DNA of 64,000 bases. Origin: Desulfovibrio sp. UCD-KL4C. Its GTDB lineage: Bacteria; Desulfobacterota; Desulfovibrionia; Desulfovibrionales; Desulfovibrionaceae. The notes below the pieces were generated by a model, which was given only the letters and a program-made list of their open reading frames with translations, had not been told where the DNA came from and searched no databases. Position 1 is the stretch's first letter. Every line of letters starts with the position of its first letter. The stretch is from NCBI RefSeq assembly GCF_006210265.1, contig NZ_VCNC01000003.1, forward strand, positions 496,001 through 560,000, given 5' to 3'. Position numbers and translations under genes: made by a program. This document shows, piece after piece, positions 1 to 23,257 of the stretch.

Positions 1-111
1 AACTTGTTGGACGAAAAATATTCAACAAGAGCGTTTGATATGGGTGGTGAATGGTACGCACGTGCCGGTGATCCATTGACCGTAGGAACAACACTTACTT
101 GTAAATTCTAA
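1..111 (+). CDS. TonB-dependent outer-membrane receptor, C-terminal end only
   Basis: Only the last 36 codons are in the window, ending in TAA at 109-111. The peptide starts NLLDEKYSTR and ends TVGTTLTCKF. An NLxDxxY stretch followed by a final amphipathic strand ending in Phe is the usual C-terminus of TonB-dependent siderophore receptors. The aromatic last residue is the signal for BAM-mediated insertion into the outer membrane. By position, just ahead of a thiazoline metallophore synthesis locus on the same strand, it is probably the cognate receptor, equivalent in role to FyuA or FptA. The plug and most of the barrel lie outside the window, so ligand class cannot be judged. Confidence 0.75.
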   Translation, partial: NLLDEKYSTRAFDMGGEWYARAGDPLTVGTTLTCKF

Positions 112-130
112 GTTCGTTATTATAGCGGTG

Positions 131-180
131 TATGGTTCTTTACTATGTGAACTTGTCTGTCTGCATAGTAAAGAACCATA
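131..180. terminator. Perfect 17-bp inverted repeat after the receptor gene
   Basis: The arms 131-147 and 164-180 are exact reverse complements, separated by 16 bases. The repeat begins 20 bases after the receptor stop codon and 34 bases before the methyltransferase start. No T-run follows the second arm, so it may be a weak terminator, an RNA-processing hairpin within a longer transcript, or an operator. Confidence 0.5.
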
Positions 181-214
181 CGTAAACATGTTAAAATAAA
201 GATGGCAGATTAAT

Positions 215-952
215 ATGCAAAAAGAAATGTATGCTGAAGCAGGTGAGTTCTATGATGTTGTATCGGATGAACAATGGCGGCTGCGCAAGGGGGCTTTTCA
301 GCAGGTTTTGTCGGGGCTGAGTGATTTTGAGGGCGCGGTTCTGGATATTGGGTCAGGAACCGGGCACGGAGTTGTTGCTGCTGCTGAGATCCTTCCCGGT
401 GCGGATATTTTTGCTGTTGAACCATCACCTACTATGCGTACAGCACTCTTATCCCGCATTATGCAGACAGGTGATCTGCGGAAAAGGGTAACGGTAGTGC
501 CATCTACTTGTGAGTCCATAGAGCTTCCCCAATCCTTGCGAGCAGTACTTTTTTTGGGGTGCATAGGGTTCATGGACGATGAGGCAAGACATAATTTTTG
601 GCCGAAACTTGCAACACGTATGTCTCCCGGTAGTTTGATTCTCTTTGATGTAATGATGATCAGCAGTCCGCAATATGTTGAAAAGATGCATCTTGCAGAA
701 ATACCTGTTGGATACAATACCTATCATGTTTGGATTGAAGGTGTTCCTGAGGGAGAACTTTTTGAAAAATGGTTGCTTACATATCAGATGATGAAAGGTG
801 ATGAGATCATTTTAGAGCGTAAAGTGGATTTTTTGTGGCGGACGCTGAGTCTTGAAGATGTCGCACGGGAGGCGGAGCCGCATGGTTTTTCCTTTGAGCC
901 TTTAACTGAGACTCTTATTCCTTCGGGAGTGTTGCGAAAAATAGCTTCCTGA
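215..952 (+). CDS. Class I SAM-dependent methyltransferase of the metallophore locus
   Basis: A 245-aa soluble protein with a class I methyltransferase fold. Motif I is seen at about residues 42-51 (VLDIGSGTG), followed by an acidic strand end (AVEPS) near residue 67 that would bind the ribose of SAM. It probably methylates the metallophore or an intermediate; the substrate is unknown. Yersiniabactin HMWP1 carries methyltransferase domains within the megasynthase, so a free enzyme may replace such a domain here. The ATG has only a weak upstream purine stretch. The stop codon overlaps the next start in TGATG, so the two genes are translationally coupled. Confidence 0.75.
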   Translation: MQKEMYAEAGEFYDVVSDEQWRLRKGAFQQVLSGLSDFEGAVLDIGSGTGHGVVAAAEILPGADIFAVEPSPTMRTALLSRIMQTGDLRKRVTVVPSTCESIELPQSLRAVLFLGCIGFMDDEARHNFWPKLATRMSPGSLILFDVMMISSPQYVEKMHLAEIPVGYNTYHVWIEGVPEGELFEKWLLTYQMMKGDEIILERKVDFLWRTLSLEDVAREAEPHGFSFEPLTETLIPSGVLRKIAS

Positions 953-1644
953 TGAGGTCCACAGGCATAAGGCAGTTTCGGTTTTATCCAGTAGGTAATG
1001 CATGTATTGATATTTTATTTTTTCGGCTCAAAGATGATTTGAAAAAACATGAATTATCTTCGTTTTTTCAGTCTCTTGACGCTACAGAACAGCATGAGGC
1101 CTCGCTCAGAAAAGGGAAGATTAGAAACCGTTACATTCAATCTCATGGATTGCTCAGGCAGATACTGGGCCGGAGCCTTCAAAAGTCTCCGGAAGAGATT
1201 GCTTATGTTCGAAACAGCTACGGTAAACCTGCACTGAAAGAGGGCGAAGTTTTATTTAATATGTCACATTCGGAAAATCTCACTATGATAGGTCTTTCCG
1301 ATAGACTGAGTATAGGGATAGATGTCCAGCGGCATATTCCCATTGATAATATTGAAGCAATAGCTGATGAAATTTTTTCTAATGATGAAAGATTGTTATT
1401 GAAAAGTTTCCCCGCGGAACTGCGTAATGATGAGTTTTTTAATATTTGGGTTCGAAAAGAAGCTTTGCTGAAATGCCTAGGAGTCGGGTTGGCAAGTAAT
1501 CCCCAGTCGTTGGGTGTTCTCCCTCAGGGGGGAAGGTTTGCCGTTGCTATGACTACTAACCATGTGAGGCTTCCCTATAGAATCTACTACGGTGTTGTTA
1601 GAGGTTTTTTTTCATGGAGCGTTGTTTTTACTTCGTATCAATAG
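952..1644 (+). CDS. Sfp-type 4'-phosphopantetheinyl transferase
   Basis: A 230-aa enzyme that transfers phosphopantetheine from coenzyme A to the active Ser of carrier domains, activating the two megasynthases downstream. The family signature is present: IGIDVQ with Asp124 as a Mg ligand, and FNIWVRKEALLK with Trp166, Lys169, Glu170 and Lys174. Its role matches YbtD of the yersiniabactin system. It starts inside the stop of the methyltransferase gene and ends 30 bp before the PKS/NRPS start, so it lies in the biosynthetic operon. The family is clear; that it serves this cluster is inferred from position. Confidence 0.9.
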   Translation: MRSTGIRQFRFYPVGNACIDILFFRLKDDLKKHELSSFFQSLDATEQHEASLRKGKIRNRYIQSHGLLRQILGRSLQKSPEEIAYVRNSYGKPALKEGEVLFNMSHSENLTMIGLSDRLSIGIDVQRHIPIDNIEAIADEIFSNDERLLLKSFPAELRNDEFFNIWVRKEALLKCLGVGLASNPQSLGVLPQGGRFAVAMTTNHVRLPYRIYYGVVRGFFSWSVVFTSYQ

Positions 1645-1674
1645 CGTTTTGTAGGAAAACTTTAGGAGCTTACA

Positions 1675-4600
1675 GTGATAAAGTACGATAATGTTTTGAA
1701 GAGTATTTTAAAAAAGATGGATGTTGGCGGTGATTCCGAACATCCATACGGTGCTGAAACTTCTTTTCTCTCGAAAGGGTTTTCTTCTTTAAAATTAGTG
1801 AAACTGTTGAATGAGGTGAAGCAGGAAACACAGTTGTCGTTTAAAGTCGTTGAAGCTTTTTCCTGCACAACACCAGCTCATTTGGCAGAGTGGATTTGCT
1901 ATCAAGTTAATGATAATGAAAGCCGCTTTCATTGTCATGATAAAAAGGTTTCGGCTCACAGTACTGCGAATAAAGATGTTGCCATTATTGGGGCGAGTTG
2001 TCGGTTCCCAGGGCTCTACGAAGGGGATGGACTGGAGTCTTTCTGGCAGACACTGCAGCAAGGGGTCGACCCTATTACTTCAGTTCCGACAGAACGATGG
2101 GACGTTGATTGGGAAATAAGTAATGGTAACTCCATATTTGGTGGATTCATTAATGACATAGATTGTTTTGATGCTTCATTTTTTCAGATTTCGCCACGCG
2201 AAGCAGCGACAATGGACCCACAGCAACGTGTTGCTTTGGAGCTTTGCTATCATGCTTTGGAGAATGCTGGAATTTCATCTGAACGAATTAGCCGTTCATT
2301 AACAGGTGTATTCTGGGGTGTTGGAGATTCTGAATATGGTCGGTTATTGCTTGAAACCGGCGAATCTCAGAATTTGTATTCTTTTACAGGCTCTTCTCCA
2401 TCATTGATTCCCGGCAGAATTGCTTATCATTTTGATATTCATGGGCCTTGTTTGGGCGTTGATACAGCCAGCTCTGGAGCTCTCCATGCCGTACATCTTG
2501 CGGTACAGGGATTACGTTGTGGTACATGCCGTCAGGCTTTGGTTGGTAGTGTTAATTTATGTATAGCCCCTGAAAAACATCGGATGATGTCCAGTGCTGG
2601 AGTTATGGCAGCAGATGGAAGATGTAAAACGTTTGATGCATCGGCAGATGGCTATGTCCGAGGAGAGGGCGGGGGTGTTCTTGTTTTAAAAAAACTTGAT
2701 GCCGCACTTGAAGATAAAGACAATATTCTAGGGGTTATCCGCGGTACAGCTGTTACACATGATGGTCATAGTAATGGTCTGACAAGCCCCAGTGGTGGTG
2801 CTCAGGCTCTCATGCTGCATTCTGCTCTTGATGATGCAGGGCTGGCTCCTTCAGATGTTGACTACATCGAATGTCATGGTACAGGCACATTTGTCGGGGA
2901 TCCTATTGAGGTTAGTGCTATAGGTTCTGTCTTTAGTGATAGTCATATAGAAAGGAATTTAAAACTAGGGTCTGTTAAGAGCAATATCGGCCATCTGGAG
3001 CAGGCGGCAGGGATTGCAGGGATTATCAAAATTTTGCTTTCTTTTAAGCACAATTCCTTACCTGCAAATTTACATTTCAAACAAGAAAATCCATTGCTTG
3101 AACTTTCATCTATTCCGGCATGCGTGGTTTCCGAGCCTTTGCCGTGGGAGGATGGAGAGCGCAAAAGAATCGCTGGCGTTAGCGGGTTCAGCCTTGCAGG
3201 AGCTAACGCTCATGTCTTGCTTGAGGAGCCTCCGCGGCTGGTTGCAGAACAGGGCCATAATACCGGTTTGGATAAGGATTCATGGCAACTGCTTCCATTC
3301 TCAGCCAGCGCGCCCCAGACTCTGGCTACGGTTAGTGCTAATTTATTTTCTTTTTTACGTGCTGCTGATTCTGCACATGGACAATTTGAATTCACAGAAA
3401 TTTGCCAGGCAGCACAGAGCCGGAGAACTCATTTTGAATGCCGTTCTTTCGGAGTTGGGGACAGTCTTGAGTCTTTAACTGAGTCTATACAAAATGCTGA
3501 TCTTTTGCCTCGATCCGGTCATGAAATCGGCCTTCCAAAGGTAGCCTTTCTTTTTACCGGACAAGGGGCGCAACGCAGTGGCATGGGCAGGGAGTTACTG
3601 AGCAATGTTGTTTTCAAAGATGCTCTTGAGATGTGCTCTGTGTTCATGGATTCCCAGTTAGAGATTCCACTTAAGCAGTTGCTTTTCGATAAAGATGCGG
3701 GTCCCGTTCTTTTGCAGACCGCCAACGCACAACCTGCACTTTTTGCATTTGAATATGCGCTCGCACAAGTTTGGCTGTCGTGGGGCGTTAAGCCTTCTGC
3801 CTTTATCGGACATAGTTTGGGAGAGTATACTGCGGCTTGTCTTGCCGGAGTGTTCTCACTTGAAGATGCTTGTAGATTGGTCGTAGCTCGCGGGCATCTT
3901 ATGCAAAAGACTAGAGCTGGGGAAATGGCTTCGGTTTTTGCAGAGCCCGGCCAAGTCAATGAATTTTTGGATTCATCAAAAGATAGAATCAATGTGGCCG
4001 CAATCAATGGACCTAAGCACACTGTTATCAGTGGGGAAAGTCTTGGCGAAACATTGGAGCGGATGCAAAAAAATGGTTTTAATGTTCACAGTTTGGAGGT
4101 GGCGCAGGCTTTCCATTCACCGCTAATGGATCAGATTCTTGATGAATTTTCTGAAATTGCGTCCGAATTAACCTATCATGCGCCTGCTGTTCCTATCATT
4201 TCCAATTTAACCGGAATGTTGGCGGAAGGTCATGAATTTGATGCCCGTTATTGGCGAGACCATATCCGTAATACTGTGCAGTTTGCGGAAGGCGTGTGTT
4301 CGCTGAGTTCTCTTGGGTGCTCACATATGCTGGAAATCGGTCCGGCTCCTGTTTTATGCAATATGGGGCGGAGGATACTTACAGATCCAAAATTGAAATG
4401 GATTCAATCCATAAATGGTGATGAAAGTGAGTGGCAGAGCATGCTAAATAGTTTGGGGCAGCTCTATTGTGATGGATTTAATCCGGTTTGGTCCGCTGTT
4501 TCGCAGGCGGATGGCAACTCCAACATTTCACTACCTGCTTATCCGTTTGAGAGGCAGCGTTATTGGGCTATCCCCAAGCCGTCAGGTTCTAAGCAGGAGC

Positions 4601-7600
4601 AACCCGAAAGTTCTGCATCTATTTCGGATACGTTTGTAGATATTGAAGAAAAAATAGATACTGTTTCTCTTCCTCTGTACGAAGAACAAGGTTCTGGCAG
4701 CTCAAATAAGGCAGAGCAATATTTGGAGGAAATGATTAAGGAAGTTCTTTGCCTTCCGGATGATACTTCGCTGCATAAGGGGCGCTCCCTTGCTGCCTTT
4801 GGAACAGATTCAATTATGGCTATGGAACTTCTGGTCCGTATAAGGAAGGAGAAAGGTGTTAACCTACAGTTGAAGGATATAATGGGAGGGCAGGGTATCA
4901 GTCAGATAGCTGACCAAATAGAAGCTTGCAATCTTGAATTGGTTAACAATGAATCTATGGAAAAGGACTGCAAGTTCATAGATGGATTTAATGACTTTCC
5001 GACAATCAGCCATGATGCTGAAGCCCGTTATGAACCGTTTCCCTTGACATCTGTTCAGCATGCCTACTGGGTTGGGCGTAATGGCGGATTGGAACTGAGC
5101 GATGTCTCATGTTTTTTGTATGTGGAGATTGATGTTTCCGATTTGGATGTCTCCAGTCTTGAACTTTCTGTTAATGCTCTCATTGCTCGGCATGATACCT
5201 TAAGGACTATTATCCGTTCAGATGGTTTGCAGCAGGTTTTGTCGTATGTCCCGGCTTATGTTGTTGCTGTGGAGGATCTCAGCACTGTCCCACGTTCAGA
5301 GCAAAAAGACCGCTTGGATTCATTACGTAGTGAACTGTCACATCAGAACAGAGACGCCGAAAAATGGCCGCTTTTTGATGTACGTGTCACTAATACTGGG
5401 GGATTTTTCCGCGTGCATGTCGGAATAGATTTGTTGCTCGTGGATGCTTGGAGTTTCGGTATATTGTTACGGGATCTTATTGCTGAATATTCTGGAATCA
5501 ATTCCACACCGAAATCCCGGGTTGTTTTCCGTGATTATGTCATGGGTCAGCAAAATTTTTTGAATTCGGAAGCATATCAATCTGCAAAACGTTATTGGGA
5601 GTTGCAGCTTGACGACCTACCTGCCGGACCTGAGCTTCCCTTGTTGCCAACTCCGGCTAGTCCCTCGGAGACACGTTTTAAGCGTTATACCGGAGGACTT
5701 AATGTTACGCAGTGGCAGAAATTACAAGAGCGAGCCCGCGAGTACGGGATAACCCCATCGGGAGTTTTGCTCGCGGCTTTTTCCACAATCTTATCGCAGT
5801 GGAGCCAGCGGGATAGTTTCAGTCTTATGCTGACTCTTTTTAATCGTCAGCCGATACATGAAGATATCAACGAAGTTGTGGGAGATTTTACTTCATTGCT
5901 GCTCTTGCGTGTTCTGGTCGATGGTAGTCCTTTCTCCTCTTATGCAGAAGCTCTTCAGCAGCAGCTCTGGCAGGATATGGAACACAGGAACGAGTGTGCT
6001 GTTGATGTTCTTCGCATGTTAAAACAGCGGAATAGTGCCGGGAACGGGACGTATGCCCCTGTCGTTTTTACCAGCATGCTGCCGCTTACTGCAGCAGATG
6101 GAAATCTGTCACAGGCTGTTGAAAGTCTTGAGAATGCATTTGGAGATATCCATATTGCCCATTGTATTACTCAGACGCCTCAAGTTCGATTTGACCATCA
6201 GGTTTATGAGCGAAAAGGGGCTCTTTGCTTTAATTGGGATATAGCTCAGGAAGTTTTTCCCGATGGAATGATAGAAGATATGCTGGAAGTATATTCATCA
6301 TTGCTACTCCGGTTGGTTGAAGGTGACAGCGCTTGGGAAAATCCAGTGGAAAGACAACTTCCTAAGCGACAGAGAATAATCCGTGAAAAAGTCAACTCGA
6401 CTAGCAAAGAGTTTGAAGAAACAACTTTGCATGCCGGCTTTATTGAGACTGCAAAATATTCTCCGGAAAGAATTGCCATAATTCTTCCTGAAGAGAAGAA
6501 AAGTTATGGCGAAGTGTTTGCCTTGGCTTCCGGTATTGCTGGCTGGCTTAAGGAAAATGGTCTTGAGCATGGCGGCATGGTTGGTGTTATTTCGGATGGA
6601 TGGCGCAAAATCCCTTCTGTTCTCGGTATACTTATGGCGGGGGGCGTGTATCTGCCGTTGGCACCTGATGCTCCTTCCCGGCGTTCCCTTGATACATTGG
6701 AGCGGGCTGAAGCTCGACATGTTCTGGCTGATCGAGCGGTATTGGAAAGTTTTGGAGATCTTGAACAGGCATCGTTGTCGCTGGAAGACATGACTCCAGC
6801 AGAATCGTTTTCAATGGTCGACGTTTCTCCTCAGGAACCAGCCTACGTCATTTATACTTCAGGTTCTACTGGTAAGCCAAAGGGAGTACTTATTACCCAT
6901 GATGCTGCTTGCAATACCATTCTTGAAATTAATGAACGTAACAATGTGAAGAAAAATGATCGAATTCTGGGTATTTCACGTTTGAATTTTGATCTTTCTG
7001 TATACGATATCTTCGGAGCTTTTCATGCCGGAGCTTCGATCGTAGTTCCTAATCCTGAAGACAGGACAGACCCTGCTCATTGGCTTAAGCTGATGGAAGA
7101 AAACCGTATCAGCGTTTGGGATTCCGTGCCTGCACTGATGTCCATGTTGCTTGATTATACGGAATTGGCGGGAGTTGCGTTACCGGATGATTTGCGCCTC
7201 GTTCTGTTTAGTGGCGACTGGATTCCATTGGATTTGCCGAAGCGACTTTGGGATAAATTATCCCATGTAAAAGTTGTGGCTATGGGGGGAGCGACCGAAG
7301 CTTCCATATGGTCTAATGCTTATGATTTTTCCGAAATCTCTCCACTCTGGAACAGTATTCCCTATGGATTTCCTCTTGCAAACCAAGGTTTTCATGTACT
7401 GGATAGCAGGCTGGAGCACCGTCCTGAGTGGGTTCAGGGCGATTTGTATATTACCGGAAAGGGGTTGGCAGTAGGTTATTTTAAGGAAGCTGAATTAACA
7501 GAAGGGAGTTTCTTCTTTCATCCGGTGACTGGCGAAAGAATGTATAAGACTGGTGATAGAGGACGTTATCTACCGGACGGTTCTCTGGAATTCCTCGGAC

Positions 7601-10600
7601 GTCAGGACACACAGGTAAAAATCCGCGGTCACAGGATTGAACTCGGTGAAATTGAGCATTCATTATGCGATATTCCGGCTTTGAAACAAGCCGTGGCCAA
7701 GGTTGCCGGAGAAGCTCAGTCTATTGTGGCTTATGTCACGGTTGATAAAGATTCATACGGTCCGGAATTAAAGAGACATACCCTTCCTGGTGTAGAATAC
7801 CAGCAGCTTATAAATTCCATAAATGACCTTAGTCTTGAAGAATTTCGCAATGATCGTAATTTGCCTGCCTCTGATGCTGATAAATATATCAGCACTGTTA
7901 ATTCTCTTTCTCTCAACTTTATGCTTCAGGTGCTTGGTGAACTGGGAGCTTTGGATTCACTTAAAGAAGGTGTCGAGCTTTCATCTCTCATGTATAAGTG
8001 CTCCATTGCAGAAGCTTGCCACCCTGTTTTCAGGTCATGGATAAATGACTTGGAAAAGGCAGGAGCAGTAAGTCAAAGTAGCGGTTTGTATCTGTTTGAT
8101 ACTTCATGGAGTGTCCCTGATTATACATCGGAAAAGTTGCATGAAAGCTGGGAGTGCTGCGCAGAAGATGTGACCGTTTATTTGGACAGACTGCTTCCAT
8201 GGGGAGCAAAACTGCTTACTGGAAAAACCGCTCCGCTAGAGGTTTTTTTCAATGAAGAGAACCGCTTGTCTCCGGAAATATTGACTTCTTTGTTTCCGGG
8301 ATATGACAACCGTATTGCATTAGCTGCAGCGGCAATAGACAATTTGTGTGATAAAAGTGAAATACCTTTGGATATCCTTGAAGTAGGAGGACGTACTGGG
8401 CAGGCAACGGAACAGCTTTTGTCCGGTTTAACCTGTAAATCTTATTCATATGTATTGACTGACAACTCGTCCTACTTTGTAGAGAAGCAAAAAGAGAGAT
8501 TGCAGGCAGATTACAGCCAACTGGGATTTATGGTTTTTGATCCATTGCAGCCGTTATATTCGCAAGCTGTTGCCGCTCATTCCAAGGATGTGGTTATTGC
8601 TTCCAGCTATGTCCACAGAACTCCAAAGCCGGAAGAGACTCTTAAAAAGTTAAAAGAGTTGTTACGTCCAGGGGGTATTCTTATTCTGCTGGAGGAAACT
8701 GAGAATACCTTGTTGCAGGATTGTACGGTATCTTTTCTGGAAGAGGGCTTTACCAGATTTACTGACGTTCGTCAGGATACCGGACTGCCGCTTATCTCAA
8801 CTACCACTTGGTCAGCCTACCTAAAGAGTGCCGCATATTTTTATGTTTGCGATTTGAGCGGCCTCATTGATCTATTTGGACAGGCCTGTCTGATAGGTTT
8901 TGCTGAGAATGCGGTTCTGGAGCTTGATAATGATCTGGTGCTGGAGCATCTGGGCCGAACTCTTCCAGAGTATATGATGCCGCAGCATATTATTCAGTTA
9001 GAGGAATTTCCTTTAACCGTTAATGGCAAGATTAATAAAAAAGCTCTTGCTGATCCCTCGGCTGTTCTTAGCTCCCGACCTAAAAGTATTCAACCGCAGA
9101 CTGAAGAAGAACGAGTTATATTTAAGTTATGGCACGAACTTCTGCCTGAAGCACATATCTCAGTTGACGATAATTTCTTTAGTGTAGGCGGAGACTCTTT
9201 GCTTGGTGTGCGTCTTGTTGCCGGGATGCATGCCCATTTCAAAATAGATATCCCATTACGCTGGCTTTTCGAACATCCGACTATTGCAGAGCTGGCCTTA
9301 GCTGTAGTCAAGGCTGCTAAGGATCGTCCGGCTGAGTCTGCCGACCATGTTCCTTTGCAGGTTGAATATGACAAAGAAGCATTGCATGAGCCATTTCCGC
9401 TGACAGATGTCCAGTATGCCTACTGGGTAGGCAAGATGGGAATCTTTTCTTTAGGTGACGTTTCCACTCATTGTTATTTTGAAATTGAAGGAAAAGGTCT
9501 TGATGTCAAACGCCTTACTGCCTGCTGGCAGCGATTGATTGATCAGCATGTCATGATGCGTGCAGTGGTGGCTCCGGATGGTCAAACCCAGCGCATACTT
9601 GAGCAGGTTCCGCTGTTTGAACCCAAGGTCGTTTGCATACCGGAAGAAGCTTCACCTTTGACGGTGGATAAAGCCCTTTCCGAAACGCGTAACAGGTTGT
9701 CCCATCTGGTATTACCTTCCGATGTATGGCCTCTCTTTACTTTTGAAATTACTTGCTACGGCATTGATAATGTCCGCCTGCATGTAGGTTTTGAGAACAT
9801 CATGTTCGATGGCTGGAGTATGCTTCATCTTCTCAGTGAGTGGACACGTTTGTATCAGGATGATCATGCAGTTTTGGAGCCGATTGAATTTTCGTTCCGA
9901 GATTATGTGTTGATGCTTGAATCATCGCGCTCCAGACAGGATTACGCCACAGCTAAAAAGTACTGGCTGGAACGTCTGCCGCAGTTACCGGCTGCTCCTA
10001 AGTTACCCACCAAAAAAGAAGAAGAGATTGTTGCCGGAGAAGGATTTCGCCGTCGCCAGTTCACTTTGGATGCTTCAACATGGATTAATTTTCAGGCAGC
10101 CGTAAGGGAAAACGGGCTTACCCCTGCTGGTGTGTTGCTCGCAGCCTATGCAGAAGTATTGTCCTTATGGAGTCGTGATGATCGTTTTACCATCAATGTG
10201 ACCCTGTTTGACCGGCTGCAGGGACATGTCGATGTGAATCGTCTTATCGGTGATTTCACTACTTTGACATTGCTAGCTGTGGAGATGGGCGGCGTCTCAT
10301 CATTTTTTGAGCGGGCGCGTCGACTTCAGGCTCGACTTTGGGAAGACAGAGATCATGCGGCTTTCAGCGGTGTGGAAATCATGCGTGAGATAAATTCAGG
10401 TTTTGATAATTCAGAGCATAAAATAATGCCTGTTGTTTTTACCAGTGCGCTGGGCGTAGATAGCTCCGGTCCAAATCAGGGACTCACCCTGCCGGGTGAC
10501 TTTATTTATGGAATTTCTCAGACTCCGCAGGTTTGGCTGGATCATCAAGTCTATGAAATGAACGGGGAACTGCTTTTAGTCTGGGATGCCGTAGAAGGTC

Positions 10601-16748: not shown

Positions 16749-17830
16749 GTGCTAAGGCTGTAGTTATAGGCGGAGGAGGCTCGATCGGGCAGGAGCTGGT
16801 TGGCTTTCTTTCGCGAAATGAGCCTGAGTTACAGATTCTCGCTGTAGGTAGAAGTCTCGATAAATTATCGCGAATGCAGGATTTGTATGGCGGTAATGTT
16901 AATATTCAAATTCTGGATTGCAGCGATCCTTCAGCTGTACGCAATGTCCTGCAGGGGAGTGATATTGTCTGCAATTGTGCTGGGCCTTCAGCTATAATGG
17001 GAGGTTCCATTGCACGGGAAAGCCTGCGTGCAGGAATCCCGTATGCAGATCCTTCAGATTCAAGATCAATGCAGGTTGTTTTTGAAAACAATGAAATCGG
17101 GCACATAACAACTCCAGCTCTTTTCGGGGCTGGAGTTGTTCCGGGGCTTTCCGGTGTTGTGCCTTTATGGTTTGAGCAGCACATTAATTCTGACGGAGGC
17201 CCATGGAGCAAAATGGATATTTACTATGTAGGAAAGGATGAATTCAGCAGTGCAGCGGCTTACGATTACGCTGAAAGTGTTCGTATGGCAGCCTTGTCTG
17301 AAACTGAACCAGCTAAACCTTATTTTATAGATGTGCCTGTTTTCGGTCAGACTTTTTTTGCCTTTGCCCACAAATCGGAAGAACACAGCCGCATTAATTG
17401 TCAAATGCATATTCCCTTTTCATATCACAATTGTTTCATCGGAGAGCATATGTTGCGCGCCTTGGGAACAATTGGAGGTCGGCAGGGAGCAGGTTTATCT
17501 CTGGATGATGCCGCAGTCATACTAAGGGAAGCTTCTCAAGCATGTGTTAATCAATATGGGAAAGGTCATTCCTTTTTGTGCAGGGCTGAAAGATCTGACG
17601 GCTTAGTAGACAGTTTGACCGTATTTATTGAGGACGTGAATGTCCTTATGGGAACGACAATGGGGCTGTCTGCTCAAGCTTTGCTTCGGGGCAAGGTTTC
17701 TGGGGCTCACTATTTTGCTGAAGCTCTTGATGCCGCAGAGGTTATCTCAGAGTTGAAGCATTATGGGTGTATTTGCGTGGTTGGGCTGGATAATTCTTTT
17801 TATGACCAGTCTCAAAAAAAGGAGTTGTAA
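16745..17830 (+). CDS. Saccharopine-dehydrogenase-like NAD(P)-dependent oxidoreductase
   Basis: A 361-aa protein with an N-terminal Rossmann fold (VVIGGGGSIGQEL, residues 6-18) and the NCAGPSAIMGG stretch typical of the saccharopine dehydrogenase NADP-binding family. It overlaps the NRPS stop by ATGA and ends 3 bp before the thiazolinyl imine reductase, so it belongs to the biosynthetic operon. It probably reduces or oxidises an assembly-line intermediate or a tailoring substrate; the reaction is not known from sequence. Two reductases side by side could act on different rings, or this one could make an opine-type C-N bond as in staphylopine-like metallophores. Neither is proven. Confidence 0.7.
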   Translation: MSAKAVVIGGGGSIGQELVGFLSRNEPELQILAVGRSLDKLSRMQDLYGGNVNIQILDCSDPSAVRNVLQGSDIVCNCAGPSAIMGGSIARESLRAGIPYADPSDSRSMQVVFENNEIGHITTPALFGAGVVPGLSGVVPLWFEQHINSDGGPWSKMDIYYVGKDEFSSAAAYDYAESVRMAALSETEPAKPYFIDVPVFGQTFFAFAHKSEEHSRINCQMHIPFSYHNCFIGEHMLRALGTIGGRQGAGLSLDDAAVILREASQACVNQYGKGHSFLCRAERSDGLVDSLTVFIEDVNVLMGTTMGLSAQALLRGKVSGAHYFAEALDAAEVISELKHYGCICVVGLDNSFYDQSQKKEL

Positions 17831-17833
17831 GGA

Positions 17834-18940
17834 ATGTCTGAACCACTACCAACTTTGTGTTGCGGCACACGTTTTGGGCGGGCATACATTGAAGGTTTAT
17901 GCCGTTCTTCAAAATTTACGTTGGCCGGTATATTTGCGCGTGGAAGCGATCGTTCGCGGGAAATTGCAGAAAAATATGGTGTGCCGCTTTATACTTCTCT
18001 TGAGCAGATCCCTGATACCATCAAGGCTGCATGTGTCGTAATACGTTCCTCTATTGTCGGAGGCGTCGGGACGAATATAGCCCTTTCGCTTTTGCGGCGT
18101 GGAATTCATGTTATTCAGGAGCATCCTTTGCATCAGCGTGAAGTTGCGATGTGTCAACAGGCAGCCAGTGACTCGGGGTGCGTATACTATCTGAACACCC
18201 ACCATATCCATATCAGTGAAACCCAGCGGTTTTTAAATATTGTTCATGAGCTTAGAAAGGAGCAGCCCATATCTTTCATAAATGCTCTATGCGGTGTGCA
18301 GGTCGTTTGTTCTTTATTGGATATTCTGGGAAGGATGATCGGCTCCGTAACGCCTTATGATTTCGATGAATACAAGCCTATCAATAGCAAAATTCTTGAG
18401 GCATGCGATATCGAGGCCTTTCCTTATGAAGTTTTACGCGGACACATCTCGAATACCCCGACAACTCTTGCGGTTCAGAATTATTATGACCCAGCTGATC
18501 CTGACAACAATGCTGCAATACTGCATCGAATTACGGTTGGATTTCCTTCAGGAAATTTGACTCTGATGAGTGCTTCTGGGCCTGTGACATGGTCAGACAG
18601 ACTGCATTTTCCTAACGAAATATTCAACATGGAAAATTCTTGCCGTGCAGGATGCCCGATTATTCGGGTTTTGGACAGTCAGGAAGAGACATCCTTATCC
18701 AGTCTTGTTGAGCAGGAGTGGCCGCAGGCTGTCACCCATGCTTTGGAAGAATTTCAGTTGAAGATACAAGGACAGGATCCCTTCTCTGATCGAAATAGTT
18801 ATGAACAGGAATTGTGTACTTTGTGGACCGATTGTATGAAGAGGCTTGGTGCTCCCCGGCTGGTGAGTACGCTTGCTCCTCCTGATGTTTTGCCTGAAAT
18901 TATAAAATCTCAATTCGGTAAACCCTCATTAAAGGTTTAG
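17834..18940 (+). CDS. Thiazolinyl imine reductase (Irp3/YbtU/PchG family)
   Basis: A 368-aa NADPH-dependent reductase of the Gfo/Idh/MocA superfamily. Residues 7-19 (TLCCGTRFGRAYI) match the variant nucleotide-binding start of thiazolinyl imine reductases, and the later EHPLH and YYLNTHH segments are also characteristic. In yersiniabactin and pyochelin synthesis the family reduces one enzyme-bound thiazoline to a thiazolidine. Its presence is strong evidence that the locus makes a thiazoline/thiazolidine metallophore. An AAGGA ribosome site lies directly before the ATG and overlaps the end of the previous gene. Confidence 0.88.
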   Translation: MSEPLPTLCCGTRFGRAYIEGLCRSSKFTLAGIFARGSDRSREIAEKYGVPLYTSLEQIPDTIKAACVVIRSSIVGGVGTNIALSLLRRGIHVIQEHPLHQREVAMCQQAASDSGCVYYLNTHHIHISETQRFLNIVHELRKEQPISFINALCGVQVVCSLLDILGRMIGSVTPYDFDEYKPINSKILEACDIEAFPYEVLRGHISNTPTTLAVQNYYDPADPDNNAAILHRITVGFPSGNLTLMSASGPVTWSDRLHFPNEIFNMENSCRAGCPIIRVLDSQEETSLSSLVEQEWPQAVTHALEEFQLKIQGQDPFSDRNSYEQELCTLWTDCMKRLGAPRLVSTLAPPDVLPEIIKSQFGKPSLKV

Positions 18941-18953
18941 TTTTGGAGAAGAA

Positions 18954-19694
18954 ATGAATCCGTTAATAGTTGCAGATGTTGATGTTAAGGCTGATTTAAG
19001 GTTGTTTTGTATGCCTTATGCTGGGGCTGGAGCCTCGTTATATAGAAGATGGAGCAGGAGTTTTCCGCTTTCAATTCAATTATGTCCTGTGCAGTTGCCT
19101 GGCAGGGAAGAGCGTTTGTTGGAGCCTAGCCTTACGAGTATAGAAAGTGTTGTTGCAGCAATTATGAAAACTCTTCCGGCTTATCTCGACAGACCTTATG
19201 CGTTGTTCGGGCACAGTATGGGAGCTAAGATCGTTTTTGAATTATGCCGGGCTATCAAAAAAGCCAGTTATAAACTCCCAGAGTTGCTGCTCGTGTCGGC
19301 TTGCAAAGCCCCTCATATGCCTGAACCTTATCCCATTCACAGTCTGCCGCAACATGAGTTTCTCGAAGGTCTTGAACGCTACTCAGCAGACACAAGTCTT
19401 TTACATGAATATCCTGAGTTACTTGAGCTTCTTTTGCCGTCATTGCGATCTGATTTTCTGCTGGATGAAAGTTATGTCTATCAGGAAGAGGAAGGAGAAG
19501 ATGTTCTGTCTATCCCGATAGAGGCCTTTTACGGGACAGATGATACAGAAGCGACTTTTGATGAAGTTAGTGGTTGGAGTGCGTATACCGAACAATTTTC
19601 ATTAACGGCAGTAGAAGGGGGTCATTTATTCCTTCGCGAAAGAAAACATGAATTTTTAAATCTGCTTAGTTCCAAACTTTGCTGTTTAATCTGA
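18954..19694 (+). CDS. Type II thioesterase (YbtT/Irp4-like)
   Basis: A 246-aa alpha/beta hydrolase. It shows FCMPYAGAGAS near residue 18, the LPGREER stretch, the nucleophile elbow GHSMG with Ser88, and a C-terminal GGHLFL histidine. These are hallmarks of stand-alone type II thioesterases, which remove wrong or stalled acyl groups from carrier domains of NRPS and PKS lines. YbtT has this role in yersiniabactin synthesis. It follows the imine reductase by 13 bp with GGAG before the ATG. Confidence 0.9.
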   Translation: MNPLIVADVDVKADLRLFCMPYAGAGASLYRRWSRSFPLSIQLCPVQLPGREERLLEPSLTSIESVVAAIMKTLPAYLDRPYALFGHSMGAKIVFELCRAIKKASYKLPELLLVSACKAPHMPEPYPIHSLPQHEFLEGLERYSADTSLLHEYPELLELLLPSLRSDFLLDESYVYQEEEGEDVLSIPIEAFYGTDDTEATFDEVSGWSAYTEQFSLTAVEGGHLFLRERKHEFLNLLSSKLCCLI

Positions 19695-19756
19695 TTCGTT
19701 TAAATTTTATACCTTGAAAATACATCATACTGTCATGAGTGTGATGGAGGATTGTC

Positions 19757-21526
19757 ATGAGACAAAAGTCCGATTTCTCACTTCTTATGGAATATGCCGG
19801 TGGATATCGATATTTTACCTACCTTTCGTGGGTCTTGTCGGCAATAAGTGCTCTTTTGGCGCTAGTTCCATTTCTGTATATCTGGAAGATTATTAAAGAA
19901 GTTCTCGATTTTGCCCCCGAATTCAGCAATGCCCATAATCTGATCCCAAACGGGTGGATGGCAGTTGGTTTTGCCGTATTGTCCCTACTGATATATATGT
20001 GTGGATTGCTCTGTTCCCATTTATCTGCATTCAGAGTTGCGTCGAATATGCGCAAAAATGTAATCAGGCATACATTGCAACTTCCACTGGGACAGGTCGA
20101 GAAGATAGGGTCCGGTAAGTTGCGCAAAATTATTAACGATACCAGCGCTGCCACAGAGACATATCTTGCACATCAATTAGTTGATAAATCCGGAGCAATT
20201 GCTACCCCTGTAGGTTTGTTGTTTCTACTTCTGTTTTTTGATTGGAGATTAGGGGTGATCAGTTTGATACCTGTCGGTCTTGGGTTTTGTGCTTTGATGT
20301 TTATGACAGGAAAAGACATGCAAAAGAAGCTTAAAGAATACCAGAATGCACTTGATGATATGTCGAATGAGGCTGTTGAATATGTCCGTGGTATTCCGGT
20401 AATTAAAACATTCGGGCAAACGGTTTTTAGTTTCAAGAGATTCAAAAATTCTATCGATGTTTATTATAGATGGGTTGTGGCGTATAGCCTCCAATGCCGT
20501 AGATCATGGCTCTTTTATATTGTGGGAATTAACAGTGTTTTTGTTTTTATTATCTTTGCTGGGATATTCGCTACCAAGGAAACTGTGACTAATGAAATTA
20601 TATTAAATTTAATGTTTTACATTATTATAACCCCGGCTATTTCAATAACGCTGACAAGAATTGTGCATATGCAAGAAGAGAATATGCTTGTTAATGATGC
20701 GCTCAGGCGTGTTAACAGTATCCTCAATATGCAGCCTTTGAATTCCGTTTTATCAATAGAGATGCCGGTTGATGCTTCAATTGATATTAGGGGAGCCAGT
20801 TACAGTTATGGCGGTGGCGGCAATGCTTTGGAAAATATTAATATGCGAATAGACAGCGGGCAGACCGTTGCTCTCGTGGGTCCTTCCGGTGGCGGTAAGA
20901 CAACTCTTGCCAGTATGGTCTCCCGTTTTTTTGATCCGCAAAAAGGGCAGATCTTGATAGGTGGGGTTGATGTTCGAAGCATCAGTAAGGCCGAGTTGAT
21001 GAAAACTGTCTCATTTGTCTTTCAGGACAGTAAGTTGATTAAGACCAGCATTTTGGAAAATGTGCGCTTAGGAAGGCCGGAAGCCTCACGTGTGAAGGTT
21101 ATGGAAGCTTTGAAGAACGCGCAATGCCTCGATATTATCGATAAATTCTCTGATGGTGTTGATACGGTCGTCGGCACGCAGGGTGTATACCTGTCAGGTG
21201 GGGAACAGCAGAGACTCGCTATTGCCAGAGCTATCCTGATGGATTCTCCTATTGTTGTTCTGGACGAAGCAACTGCATTTGCAGACCCTGATAACGAAAC
21301 ACGTATTCAAGAAGCTTTTGCGGTGCTTTCTGCTGGAAAGACCGTGATTATGATAGCGCACCGTCTTTCTACTGTCATGAATTCTGATCGTATTTTTGTA
21401 TTGAAAGACGGACAAATTGTTGAAGACGGCTCTTTTCAGGAGCTTGAACAGAAGCAAGGCGTGTTCTCACGTATGTGGGATGATTACCAATCATCGGTGC
21501 AATGGAAAGTTGCAAAAGAGGTATAA
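19757..21526 (+). CDS. ABC transporter, fused membrane and ATPase domains (YbtP/Irp6-like)
   Basis: A 589-aa half transporter with an N-terminal six-helix ABC type 1 membrane domain (about 25-310) and a C-terminal ATPase: Walker A GPSGGGKTT (about 374-382), signature LSGGEQQR, Walker B IVVLDEAT and a switch His in IAHR. It pairs with the next gene, as YbtP pairs with YbtQ, where exporter-fold proteins import ferric yersiniabactin across the inner membrane. Export of the apo-metallophore is the alternative and sequence alone does not decide. The start was chosen for the ATGGAGG ribosome site about 10 bp upstream. It lies 62 bp after the thioesterase with no clear terminator between. Confidence 0.9.
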   Translation: MRQKSDFSLLMEYAGGYRYFTYLSWVLSAISALLALVPFLYIWKIIKEVLDFAPEFSNAHNLIPNGWMAVGFAVLSLLIYMCGLLCSHLSAFRVASNMRKNVIRHTLQLPLGQVEKIGSGKLRKIINDTSAATETYLAHQLVDKSGAIATPVGLLFLLLFFDWRLGVISLIPVGLGFCALMFMTGKDMQKKLKEYQNALDDMSNEAVEYVRGIPVIKTFGQTVFSFKRFKNSIDVYYRWVVAYSLQCRRSWLFYIVGINSVFVFIIFAGIFATKETVTNEIILNLMFYIIITPAISITLTRIVHMQEENMLVNDALRRVNSILNMQPLNSVLSIEMPVDASIDIRGASYSYGGGGNALENINMRIDSGQTVALVGPSGGGKTTLASMVSRFFDPQKGQILIGGVDVRSISKAELMKTVSFVFQDSKLIKTSILENVRLGRPEASRVKVMEALKNAQCLDIIDKFSDGVDTVVGTQGVYLSGGEQQRLAIARAILMDSPIVVLDEATAFADPDNETRIQEAFAVLSAGKTVIMIAHRLSTVMNSDRIFVLKDGQIVEDGSFQELEQKQGVFSRMWDDYQSSVQWKVAKEV

Positions 21527-21529
21527 GTC

Positions 21530-23257
21530 ATGATTAATATGCTACAAAAAAAATTTGCCTTATCAGAACAAGGTGCGAAAGATTTGGTAGTAGGTTCTCT
21601 AGCTTGTCTATTTCATAATATATCACTTATGCTTCCGGTCGGACTTTTATATTATTTTATTTGTGAACTCGTGGTAGATGGGAGCACCAATAGAGCATTC
21701 TTTTATATGGGATGTAGTGTGATATGTCTCATCCTGATTGCCATAACTTCATTTTTTCAATATAATTTAACATACTTACCACCGTATAATGAAAGTTGTA
21801 TCCGTAGGATTTCTCTTGCGGAACAATTACGAAAGCTTCCCTTATCTTTCTTTGCTCGGAAAGACCTTTCTGACTTAACCAGCGTGATCATGTCTGATTG
21901 TTCTTTTCTGGAAAGAGTTTTCTCTCATTTTATCCCGCAGTTGGTCGGTTCAATCCTTTCAACTGTGCTGATCGGCATAAGTCTGTTCTTTATTGATTGG
22001 CGTATGGGCATAGCTGCAATGTGGGGAGTTCCTATTGCATTCATTATTATCGCAATGTCTTCCAAGGTGCAGGACCGGTTACAAGAAAAGCAGATGGACG
22101 CCAAAATGGCATGTGCTGACGGTATACAGGAATGCATAGAAACTGTGCGAGATTTAAAGGCTTGCAATGCAGAGGAAGAGTATCTCAAGGAGTTGGATAA
22201 AAAAATTGATGCTGTCGAAAGCAGAGCTGTTTTCTCTGAGTTTGGAACAGCTGTGTTTGTAGTTTCATCTGGATTACTTTTGAAACTGGGGATTGCCACA
22301 GTTGCTCTTGCCGGATCTCTTTTATTGGTAGAAGGGCAAATTGATCTGTTGACATTTTTTATGTTTTTACTGGTAGCATCTCGTTTATATGATCCTTTAC
22401 AGGAATCTTTACATAATCTTATGGGAATTATTCTTGCCCGAACTAATATTTCAAGAACAAAAAATATATTGGAACATCCAAAGCAAAGCGGAGTTCCTCA
22501 ACTGACAAACAAAGGATATGATGTTGTTCTGCATGATGTCGGCTTTTCATACAATGACAGCAACTATGTTTTAAATGATGTCTCGCTGACGATAAATCAG
22601 GGCGACGTTACAGCTCTTGTCGGACCGTCCGGCGGTGGTAAAACAACTGTATCCCGCCTTGTTGCGAGGTTTTGGGAGGTAAATAAAGGGAGTATTACTA
22701 TCGGTGGCATGGATATCTCGAATATTGATCCTGAACGGCTGTTCTCCTTATTCGCAATTGTCTTTCAGGATGTCACCCTTTTTAATGATACTATCATGGA
22801 AAATATTCGTGTTGGTAAGCATGATGCAACAGATGAAGAAGTTCTGGCTGCTGCGAAGCATGCATATTGTGATAAGATTGCATCAAAATTGCCTGATGGT
22901 TGGAATACTATGATTGGTGAAAATGGCTGCACCCTTTCCGGTGGAGAGCGTCAACGGATATCAATTGCCAGAGCCTTTCTTAAAAATGCCCCGATCCTTT
23001 TATTAGATGAAGCAACAGCTTCGCTTGATGTGGAAAATGAAACGCTTATTCAGACAGCTCTTTCACGACTCATAAAGGATAAGACCGTGCTTGTCATTGC
23101 ACACCGTATGAGAACTGTAGCCGGGGCAGATAAAATTGTCGTTCTGGCAGAAGGTTCCGTAGTTGAGGAAGGCTCGCCTGCAGAGTTAATAGAGAAAGAC
23201 AGTGTCTACCGCCATATGGTTGAGCTTCAGACACAGGGGCAGGAGTGGAGCATTTAG
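21530..23257 (+). CDS. ABC transporter, fused membrane and ATPase domains (YbtQ/Irp7-like)
   Basis: A 575-aa half transporter with the same layout as its upstream neighbour: membrane domain (about 20-300), Walker A GPSGGGKTT (about 364), signature LSGGERQR, Walker B ILLLDEATAS and IAHR. It starts 3 bp after the previous stop, with GAGG upstream, so the two are co-translated and very likely form a heterodimer. It is the last clear gene of the metallophore operon; a strong hairpin terminator follows at about 23400. Confidence 0.9.
   Translation: MINMLQKKFALSEQGAKDLVVGSLACLFHNISLMLPVGLLYYFICELVVDGSTNRAFFYMGCSVICLILIAITSFFQYNLTYLPPYNESCIRRISLAEQLRKLPLSFFARKDLSDLTSVIMSDCSFLERVFSHFIPQLVGSILSTVLIGISLFFIDWRMGIAAMWGVPIAFIIIAMSSKVQDRLQEKQMDAKMACADGIQECIETVRDLKACNAEEEYLKELDKKIDAVESRAVFSEFGTAVFVVSSGLLLKLGIATVALAGSLLLVEGQIDLLTFFMFLLVASRLYDPLQESLHNLMGIILARTNISRTKNILEHPKQSGVPQLTNKGYDVVLHDVGFSYNDSNYVLNDVSLTINQGDVTALVGPSGGGKTTVSRLVARFWEVNKGSITIGGMDISNIDPERLFSLFAIVFQDVTLFNDTIMENIRVGKHDATDEEVLAAAKHAYCDKIASKLPDGWNTMIGENGCTLSGGERQRISIARAFLKNAPILLLDEATASLDVENETLIQTALSRLIKDKTVLVIAHRMRTVAGADKIVVLAEGSVVEEGSPAELIEKDSVYRHMVELQTQGQEWSI

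What the first reader, a model, noticed from the sequence alone, without database searches (positions are those of the whole stretch)
1..23257. Thiazoline-metallophore locus in a sulfate reducer with a PKS front end instead of an aryl-loading module
The gene set (receptor, PPTase, HMWP2-like and PchF-like synthases, thiazolinyl imine reductase, type II thioesterase, YbtP/YbtQ-like pair) marks a yersiniabactin/pyochelin-class system. But the salicyl-loaded carrier of HMWP2/PchE is replaced by ACP-KS-AT-ACP, and no salicylate synthase or aryl-AMP ligase is present. The expected product has up to three cysteine-derived rings on a non-aryl or polyketide starter, which I do not match to a described compound. 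Such a compound could serve metal uptake in sulfidic habitats, where free metals precipitate.
Basis: partly seen in the sequence, partly recalled or inferred. Interest (0 to 1): 0.88.

Follow-up and report, generated by a model that had tools for sequence, protein, structure and literature searches.

The report
Metallophore line with decarboxylating acetyl loader
A sulfate-reducing bacterium carries genes for a cysteine-ring metal-scavenging molecule that seems to start from a two-carbon acetyl piece instead of the usual salicylate, so the likely product is an unusual metal binder that searches for salicylate genes would miss.

Summary
A 3203-aa synthase reads ACP-KS-AT-ACP-Cy-A-PCP-Cy-PCP and an 1821-aa synthase reads Cy-A-PCP-TE, with thiazolinyl imine reductase, saccharopine-dehydrogenase-like protein, PPTase, methyltransferase, type II thioesterase, ABC pair and TonB receptor. 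No salicylate synthase or salicyl/dihydroxybenzoyl-AMP ligase scores over its cut-off anywhere in the 99.9%-complete genome.

One reading changes. The KS active-site cysteine is serine (Ser266), also in both orthologous clusters found (59-66% identity), with both catalytic histidines kept. Such serine KS domains are described as malonyl-decarboxylating loaders (natamycin, nystatin). So the "PKS front end" is most likely a starter loader, not an extender: acetyl, then three cysteine rings. The back end (SacDH, reductase, Cys-nucleophile TE, methyltransferase) matches coelibactin/sorangibactin; the front resembles micacocidin's MicC without FAAL and KR.

Of 288 genomes of the family searched, three have the reductase; all three carry the Ser-KS. 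My searches found no described compound with this layout. It is a new variant of a known kind. Acetyl starter, bound metal and final structure are inferred, not shown; the conserved N-terminal carrier leaves room for a Ser-KS that still condenses.

The parts
1..111 (+). 3' end of TonB-dependent receptor (714 aa; starts at L003:17967, i.e. G000:C3:493967)
   Evidence: orthologues head the same gene row in G002 and G046
215..952 (+). free-standing SAM methyltransferase (245 aa)
   Evidence: Pfam Methyltransf_25; 34% identical to the methyltransferase of the Streptomyces sp. SAT1 cluster
952..1644 (+). 4'-phosphopantetheinyl transferase
   Evidence: Pfam ACPS; NCBIfam HetI/AcpT-like below cut-off
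1675..11286 (+). NRPS1 (3203 aa): ACP-KS(Ser)-AT-ACP-Cy-A(stuffed MT-like)-PCP-Cy-PCP
   Evidence: Pfam; orthologues 66% (G002) and 59% (G046) identical over nearly full length
1750..1896 (+). N-terminal ACP (Ser of GFSSL kept)
   Evidence: Pfam PP-binding 30.9 bits, over cut-off; 39/38% identity to the two orthologues against 76/72% for the KS
1972..3078 (+). KS domain; active-site codon 2470-2472 is AGC (Ser266) in place of Cys
3547..4380 (+). AT domain, GHSLGE and QAFH motifs (malonyl type)
   Evidence: Pfam; motifs
4705..4929 (+). second ACP (ends approximate)
   Evidence: GTDSI motif; Pfam PP-binding, four stretches in the protein
5041..6321 (+). Cy1, DLLLVD motif
   Evidence: Pfam Condensation; motif
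6445..9084 (+). A1, code DLYDLSMI(W), with inserted methyltransferase-like domain (motif I EVGGRTG, degenerate); end approximate
9121..9300 (+). PCP1
   Evidence: Pfam PP-binding
9412..10674 (+). Cy2, ENIMFD motif (DNIMFD in G046); ends approximate
11056..11235 (+). PCP2 (no A domain of its own, as in HMWP2)
   Evidence: GGNSL motif
11283..16748 (+). NRPS2 (1821 aa): TubC docking-Cy-A(stuffed MT)-PCP-TE
   Evidence: Pfam; orthologues 71% (G002) and 64-66% (G046) identical
15870..16682 (+). TE domain; nucleophile codon 16080-16082 is Cys (GYCMG); ends approximate
16745..17830 (+). saccharopine-dehydrogenase-like oxidoreductase (361 aa)
   Evidence: Pfam PF03435 42.9 bits, over cut-off
17834..18940 (+). 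thiazolinyl imine reductase
   Evidence: TIGR01761 325 bits, cut-off 188.8; aligns with Irp3/YbtU structures
18954..19694 (+). type II thioesterase
   Evidence: Pfam PF00975
19757..21526 (+). ABC transporter, membrane + ATPase half 1
   Evidence: Pfam; 74% identical to the gene in G002
21530..23257 (+). ABC transporter, membrane + ATPase half 2
   Evidence: NCBIfam MsbA-like, below cut-off; 76% identical to the gene in G002

Best explanation
The locus makes and moves a cysteine-ring metallophore whose assembly line starts from acetate. The AT loads malonyl onto an ACP of the front end; the KS, with Ser266 for Cys but both histidines kept, removes CO2 instead of condensing and leaves acetyl-ACP; Cy1 condenses acetyl with cysteine to a 2-methylthiazoline; A1 also charges PCP2 and Cy2 adds a second ring; NRPS2 adds a third, and its inner methyltransferase, whose SAM motif is intact, N-methylates a reduced ring; the thiazolinyl imine reductase and the SacDH-like enzyme each reduce or tailor a ring; the Cys-nucleophile TE releases the chain. 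The TonB receptor takes the metal complex back through the outer membrane and the ABC pair handles the inner membrane. Shown by sequence: gene set, domain order, Ser-KS, malonyl-type AT motifs, cysteine-type codes, Cys-TE. Inferred: decarboxylation, acetyl starter, charging of PCP2 by A1, which rings are reduced or methylated, the metal, and transport direction.
For: Ser at the KS active site in the window, G002 and G046, and in the less similar G010 synthase. In 97 relative loci, 140 of 144 KS stretches keep Cys, 1 has Gln, and the 3 Ser are G002, G046 and G010 (window not counted). Both catalytic His kept in the three orthologues and in G010 (read). AT motifs of malonyl type (HAFH = malonyl in PMC7242659, passages). 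PMC12843615 (passages) describes natamycin's CAL-ACP-KS-AT-ACP loader, with inactive ligase and a Cys-to-Ser KS that only decarboxylates: the same ACP-KS(Ser)-AT-ACP order as here. No KR, DH or ER was reported in the front end. No salicylate synthase or aryl-AMP ligase over cut-off in the genome. The N-ACP diverges at 39/38% between orthologues, near the KS-AT and post-AT linkers (33-41%) and below the KS (76/72%) and the other carriers (ACP2 59/44%, PCP2 79/63%, PCP3 75/64%), as expected of a relic. Back end as in coelibactin/sorangibactin (PMC10127202 section 7).
Against: The attachment Ser of the N-ACP is kept in 5 of 5 sequences and 5 of 5 score as carriers, which a pure relic would not need. 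Ser-KS domains are said to have reduced, not zero, condensing activity. An acetyl cap lacks the phenolate that aryl members of the class use to bind iron, so metal affinity is uncertain. A1 has Asp at 278 in the window (Asn in G002 and G046), and in sorangibactin a domain predicted to load Cys is thought to load Ser. No Fur-type box beyond chance was found left of the receptor in the window.
Confidence: 0.6

Rival explanations
1. The Ser-KS still condenses. Acetyl (or another acyl) on the N-ACP is extended with malonyl once to acetoacetyl, giving a beta-keto (enaminone) thiazoline head, or several times to an orsellinate-like ring, as micacocidin's front end builds an alkylsalicylate ring. Either would restore an oxygen ligand next to the ring nitrogen.
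For: N-ACP carrier Ser kept in 5 of 5, PP-binding in 5 of 5. The related G051 synthase has an intact Cys KS with the same ACP-KS-AT-ACP front and no KR reported by Pfam. Micacocidin/massiliachelin have FAAL, ACP, KS, AT and KR domains and a phenol ring in the product (PMC6604713 section 4 read; the exact MicC domain order is recalled). Reduced but not absent condensation is stated for Ser-KS.
Against: Loss of the active-site Cys in three orthologues and in G010; no FAAL, KR or cyclase domain reported; no chain-activating ligase in the cluster or 20 kb to the left. The ACP-KS(Ser)-AT-ACP precedent only decarboxylates.
Confidence: 0.2
2. A starter (aryl or acyl) is loaded on the N-ACP in trans by a ligase encoded elsewhere, or taken up from outside, and the KS merely hands it on.
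For: The N-ACP sits where HMWP2/EqbE have their aryl carrier; equibactin lacks a salicylate synthase and needs added salicylate in defined medium (PMC3672683, passages); general acyl-CoA and PaaK-like ligases exist in the genome.
Against: No dihydroxybenzoyl/salicyl-AMP ligase over cut-off in the genome (best 196.6 of 723.55 bits); equibactin has its ligase EqbD in the cluster, this locus has none there or in the 20 kb to the left. An AT with malonyl motifs would have no use.
Confidence: 0.1
3. The product is a thiazoline peptide with another role (for example an antibacterial), not a metal carrier.
For: Bilothiazoles from a Bilophila cluster, also thiazole NRPS products, showed antibacterial activity for some members (PMC11934131, abstract).
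Against: A TonB-dependent receptor heads the gene row in 3 of 3 orthologous clusters; a FeoB gene lies beside the cluster in G002 and G046; AraC-type regulator genes lie nearby in both (read by eye).
Confidence: 0.1

Closest known systems
Coelibactin / sorangibactin clusters (Streptomyces, Sorangiineae)
   Same: Two NRPSs with three Cy modules, SacDH-like enzyme, thiazolinyl imine reductase, TE with Cys nucleophile, methyltransferase(s), TEII, ABC pair; gene order NRPS1-NRPS2-SacDH-reductase as in Streptomyces sp. SAT1, which I label coelibactin-like from its gene set (PMC10127202 passages and section 7)
   Different: Those load salicylate (salicylate synthase and AMP ligase in the cluster) and have a P450; here neither, and the aryl carrier is replaced by ACP-KS(Ser)-AT-ACP
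Equibactin (Streptococcus equi) and related Clostridium kluyveri and C. difficile clusters
   Same: EqbE/EqbG with four carriers, three Cy domains, one A, one epimerase-like, one MT and a TE; reductase EqbF, saccharopine-dehydrogenase-family EqbM, PPTase; EqbE has Asp278 as window A1 (PMC3672683 passages and section 7; PMC6814731 passages)
   Different: Salicyl-AMP ligase EqbD loads an aryl carrier; single A domain; no polyketide part
Micacocidin / massiliachelin (MicC type)
   Same: PKS front before the cysteine modules, single-A MicC with epimerase-like domain (PMC6604713 section 4; domain order recalled); window NRPS1 aa 23-491 is 41% identical to the first synthase protein of a similar Undibacterium cluster
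   Different: FAAL and KR present, Cys KS in Undibacterium, alkylsalicylate head, the line continues with PKS modules
Natamycin/nystatin Ser-KS loading modules
   Same: ACP-KS(Ser)-AT-ACP behind an inactive ligase domain (natamycin); malonyl unit decarboxylated (PMC12843615 passages)
   Different: They start modular polyketides, not cysteine rings
Epothilone EpoA-EpoB (recalled, not tested)
   Same: Altered-KS loader gives acetyl, Cy domain makes a 2-methyl ring with cysteine
   Different: KS has Tyr, extra ER, oxidase makes thiazole, macrolide product
Bilothiazoles (bil cluster, Bilophila, Desulfovibrionia)
   Same: Irp2-like thiazoline NRPS line in a sulfide-producing bacterium (PMC11934131 outline and sections 5 and 7); kinship of Bilophila to the window's unnamed family was not tested
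   Different: 2,3-dihydroxybenzoate starter, PKS in the middle; the words saccharopine and thiazolinyl do not occur in its main text

Membership tests
Aryl-capped thiazoline siderophores (yersiniabactin/pyochelin) | salicylate synthase and salicyl-AMP ligase | tested here: not met
   none in the cluster or 20 kb left; genome-wide models below cut-off
Aryl-capped thiazoline siderophores (yersiniabactin/pyochelin) | N-terminal aryl carrier directly before Cy1 | tested here: not met
   ACP-KS-AT-ACP lies before Cy1; whether the N-ACP descends from an aryl carrier was not tested
Aryl-capped thiazoline siderophores (yersiniabactin/pyochelin) | Cy domains with cysteine A domains and thiazolinyl imine reductase | tested here: met
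   three Cy; A2 8 of 8 positions as PchF, A1 near-cysteine; TIGR01761 over cut-off
Coelibactin/sorangibactin-like | SacDH-like enzyme plus reductase plus methyltransferase | tested here: met
   SacDH only 23% identical to that of SAT1
Coelibactin/sorangibactin-like | TE with Cys nucleophile | tested here: met
   GYCMG in 3 of 3 orthologues, GYCLG in SAT1
Coelibactin/sorangibactin-like | salicylate start and P450 | tested here: not met
   no such gene among those read in 1-23257 and in 20 kb left
Ser-KS decarboxylative loading module | KS Cys replaced by Ser, two His kept, malonyl AT, ACP follows | tested here: met
Ser-KS decarboxylative loading module | malonyl-ACP decarboxylated to acetyl-ACP | not testable with these tools
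   needs purified protein
Micacocidin (MicC) type | FAAL and KR in the front end | tested here: not met
   not reported by Pfam
Micacocidin (MicC) type | KS from a FAAL-ACP-KS lineage | tested here: inconclusive
   Undibacterium KS joins the clade at support 0.37 only
Metallophore | binds and delivers a metal; induced by metal limitation | not testable with these tools
   TonB receptor in 3 of 3, FeoB beside 2 of 3; Fur-box search negative in the window

The most novel reading that the evidence does not exclude
A metallophore class with no salicylate-type head: an acetate-started tris-(thiazoline/thiazolidine), or, if the Ser-KS still condenses once, an acetoacetyl-derived enaminone-thiazoline head that mimics the phenol-thiazoline chelate with a polyketide oxygen. 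Either would be a new head group for this class, evolved by stripping a MicC-like front end and changing one KS residue.
Probability: 0.6. Interest if true: 0.72.

Novelty: new variant of a known kind. Interest (0 to 1): 0.62.

Why it matters
Thiazoline siderophores are mostly recognised through salicylate synthesis and loading. The antiSMASH metallophore rule described in PMC12971057 (passages) rests on chelator genes, and the paper says NRPS-made thiazol(id)ines could not be detected without many false positives, so a cluster like this one is likely to be missed (inferred; antiSMASH was not run). That paper lists 5 of 847 Desulfobacterota genomes with a detected region; whether the window's genome is of that phylum was not tested. 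If the acetyl start is right, one cluster gives a compact case of how an aryl-type line loses its head group (ligase gone, KR gone, KS Cys to Ser, N-ACP left over), parallel to the route proposed for polyene loaders. It would also show what a metal carrier without phenolate looks like in sulfidic habitats.

Tried and rejected
A hidden aryl ligase or salicylate synthase in the genome: models TIGR02275 and TIGR03494 stay far below cut-off (added while checking this report). One search listed families only at E up to 1e-90; one AMP-binding match (L049) was not classified.

KS change as a sequencing error: rejected, Ser is present in independent genomes G002 and G046.

Wider search for the Ser-KS: the scan of genome contigs gave 78 loci (best 80 of 351 relatives); none of their KS stretches has Ser. 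Records near the window's own genome may be left out there. Viral contigs: none. The other genome over the reductase cut-off in the phylum sample, G598, has a 5218-aa synthase that begins with a carrier and Cy, and a KS-AT stretch on a separate 803-aa ORF, so not this layout. The eight matches below cut-off in that sample were not followed.

Regulation: the recalled Desulfovibrio Fur motif with up to 3 mismatches gave 4 matches in L003 against 4.2 expected and 9 in the window against 10.3 expected; the classical 19-bp Fur box gave none in L003. More than chance in L028 (G046; 9 against 3.0) and L037 (G002; 14 against 3.2), 5 against 2.9 in L034. Inconclusive, not used.

SacDH: no PDB match better than E 0.1. 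KS tree: supports beyond the three orthologues are 0.84 with G010, 0.58 with G051, 0.37 with Undibacterium; the first tree call failed at display. The A-domain pattern misread positions 299/301 of NRPS2; that code was then read by eye. Position 517 (Lys) was assumed, not checked. GrsA position numbers are recalled; eight were compared with Table 1 of PMC3672683. Lusichelins (PMC12210259, passages) were considered and dropped: salicyl-capped.

Structure prediction and fold search were not run: they would not settle KS activity.

Full report
What is there. The window is G000:C3:496001-560000 of a 3.93 Mb genome (99.91% complete) that carries dsrA over its curated cut-off, so 'sulfate reducer' is sound; no call names the organism. 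From the left flank into the window runs one row of genes on the + strand: a TonB-dependent receptor (714 aa, start L003:17967, stop at window 109-111), a methyltransferase, a PPTase, NRPS1 (3203 aa), NRPS2 (1821 aa), a saccharopine-dehydrogenase-like protein, a thiazolinyl imine reductase (325 bits against a cut-off of 188.8), a type II thioesterase and two ABC half-transporters.

Domain order. Pfam and motifs give NRPS1 as ACP-KS-AT-ACP-Cy-A-PCP-Cy-PCP with a methyltransferase-like domain inside A, and NRPS2 as docking-Cy-A-PCP-TE, again with a methyltransferase inside A. No KR, DH or ER was reported. A2 reads DLYNLSLI at the eight positions tabulated for PchF, BacA and BlmIV; A1 reads DLYDLSMI, with the Asp278 also seen in EqbE, while G002 and G046 have Asn there. 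The inner methyltransferase of NRPS2 keeps the SAM motif (EVGAGVG) and aligns with CurJ at 123 bits; that of NRPS1 is degenerate (EVGGRTG) and scores 80 bits. This resembles the methyltransferase-like epimerase of PchE, micacocidin and yersiniabactin lines that sets a D-thiazoline (PMC6604713 section 4 read), though epimerase activity was not tested here.

The key residue. The KS active site reads DTASSG, not DTACSS: codon 2470-2472 is AGC, Ser266. The same Ser is in the two orthologous clusters found, G002 (same genus, 66% identity over NRPS1) and G046 (same family, 59%), and in the less similar G010 synthase, while G051 keeps Cys. In 97 relative loci, 144 KS stretches gave 140 Cys, 1 Gln and 3 Ser, the three being G002, G046 and G010. 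Both catalytic histidines are kept (G010 read). Such a KS is described: PMC12843615 (passages) states that in natamycin's CAL-ACP-KS-AT-ACP loader the ligase is inactive, the KS has Ser for Cys and only decarboxylates the extender unit, and that nystatin and amphotericin use the same subtype; elsewhere it says the subtype has reduced condensing activity. I recall, but did not fetch, the nystatin NysA and epothilone EpoA work. The AT has GHSLGE and QAFH/QGFH, near the malonyl pattern HAFH. The simplest reading is therefore an acetyl loader, then a 2-methylthiazoline from Cy1.

What speaks against it. The N-terminal ACP keeps its attachment Ser in 5 of 5 sequences and scores as a carrier in 5 of 5. 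Its identity between orthologues is 39/38%, against 76/72% for the KS, 59/44% for ACP2 and 33-41% for the KS-AT and post-AT linkers: fast-evolving, as a relic would be, but not dead. If it is loaded, the KS may still condense, and an acetoacetyl or aromatic head becomes possible; I give that 0.2. Trans-loading of an aryl acid is less likely because no salicylate synthase (171.9 of 325.15 bits) or dihydroxybenzoyl-AMP ligase (196.6 of 723.55 bits) reaches its cut-off in the genome.

Relatives and history. Of 288 genomes of the family, 3 have the reductase: this one, G002 and G046; all three have the Ser-KS front. Of 395 genomes drawn from the phylum, 10 match at E up to 1e-10 and 2 are over the cut-off, this one and G598, which has another layout. 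Within the sampled genus, 2 of 17 genomes carry the cluster. The window and G002 share left-flank genes (Der-like GTPase, LuxR-type regulator) as read. G002 has extra genes beside the cluster: FeoB, an alpha/beta hydrolase and a PLP enzyme that looks like cysteine synthase (Pfam), then an AraC-type regulator and TonB/ExbB/ExbD-like genes by reading; G046 has a FeoB 64% identical to it. These point to iron, but none was seen beside the cluster in the window; the best match to the G002 FeoB in the window's genome is 35% identical and on another contig.

Comparison with known systems. Gene order and tailoring set match a cluster of Streptomyces sp. SAT1 that I label coelibactin-like (AMP ligase, NRPS1-NRPS2-SacDH-reductase-P450-TEII-methyltransferase-ABC-ABC, salicylate synthase; identities 23-39%), including the Cys-nucleophile TE that PMC10127202 reports for sorangibactin and coelibactin. 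There, deletion of SrbE/F/G (SacDH-like and methyltransferases) or SrbI (reductase), or mutation of the TE Cys, abolished sorangibactin A (section 7 read). Equibactin has the same ring-forming plan, and its product was lost without the SacDH-like EqbM (PMC3672683, passages and section 7). The front end resembles micacocidin/massiliachelin without FAAL and KR (PMC6604713; MicC domain order recalled; Undibacterium protein 41% identical over ACP-KS). Membership: it fails the aryl features of the yersiniabactin/pyochelin, coelibactin and equibactin groups and the FAAL/KR features of micacocidin, so it is not filed as a member of any, but it works like them from ring 1 onward.

Not in print, as far as searched: the listings (thiazoline + yersiniabactin + sulfate-reducing, 0 papers), 40, 53, 55, 74, 75 and 88 and the papers opened from them gave no described cluster with this layout; a thiazoline line from a related kind of bacterium is the aryl-started bil cluster of Bilophila (PMC11934131). 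Only open-licence papers were searchable, and antiSMASH and MIBiG were not available.

Verdict. Real and conserved in three genomes; a new variant of a known kind. The most interesting claim, a metallophore of this class with no salicylate-type head, is likely but rests on one residue plus precedent and on absent genes, and on no chemistry.

Noticed in passing
L031 and L033 (G010), L030 and L032 (G051): A second, related cluster type in the family: ACP-KS-AT-ACP-Cy-A-PCP-Cy-A-PCP next to a KS-containing synthase, with TonB receptor and type II thioesterase homologues. G010 has the Ser-KS, G051 the Cys-KS: a natural pair for testing what the change does.
   Followed up: partly
L037:12465-14441, 7758-8828, 6766-7674 (G002): FeoB, an alpha/beta hydrolase and a PLP enzyme that looks like cysteine synthase beside the orthologous cluster; equibactin (EqbN) and sorangibactin (SrbA) clusters also have an alpha/beta hydrolase.
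   Followed up: partly
L003:17694-17705 and 17728-17739: Perfect 12-base inverted repeat (TTGCATCAAATT / AATTTGATGCAA) about 230 bases before the receptor start (read): possible operator or terminator.
   Followed up: no
L003:14786-15973 and 15995-16507: Bcr/CflA-like MFS transporter and MarR-like regulator between the flank and the receptor (read by eye); could be an exporter of the product.
   Followed up: no
L029, about 8312-9616: A gene that looks like an IS256-type transposase after the G046 cluster (read by eye), a hint of mobility.
   Followed up: no
window:24148-31141: Gene row that looks like an Rnf complex with an ApbE-like protein, on the - strand (read by eye).
   Followed up: no
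window:60080-64000: Gene row that looks like the Qrc quinone reductase complex of sulfate reducers (read by eye).
   Followed up: no
L142/L143 (G598:C19): A 5218-aa single-chain synthase with four Cy-A-like repeats and a separate 803-aa KS-AT ORF beside a thiazolinyl imine reductase, in another family of the phylum.
   Followed up: no
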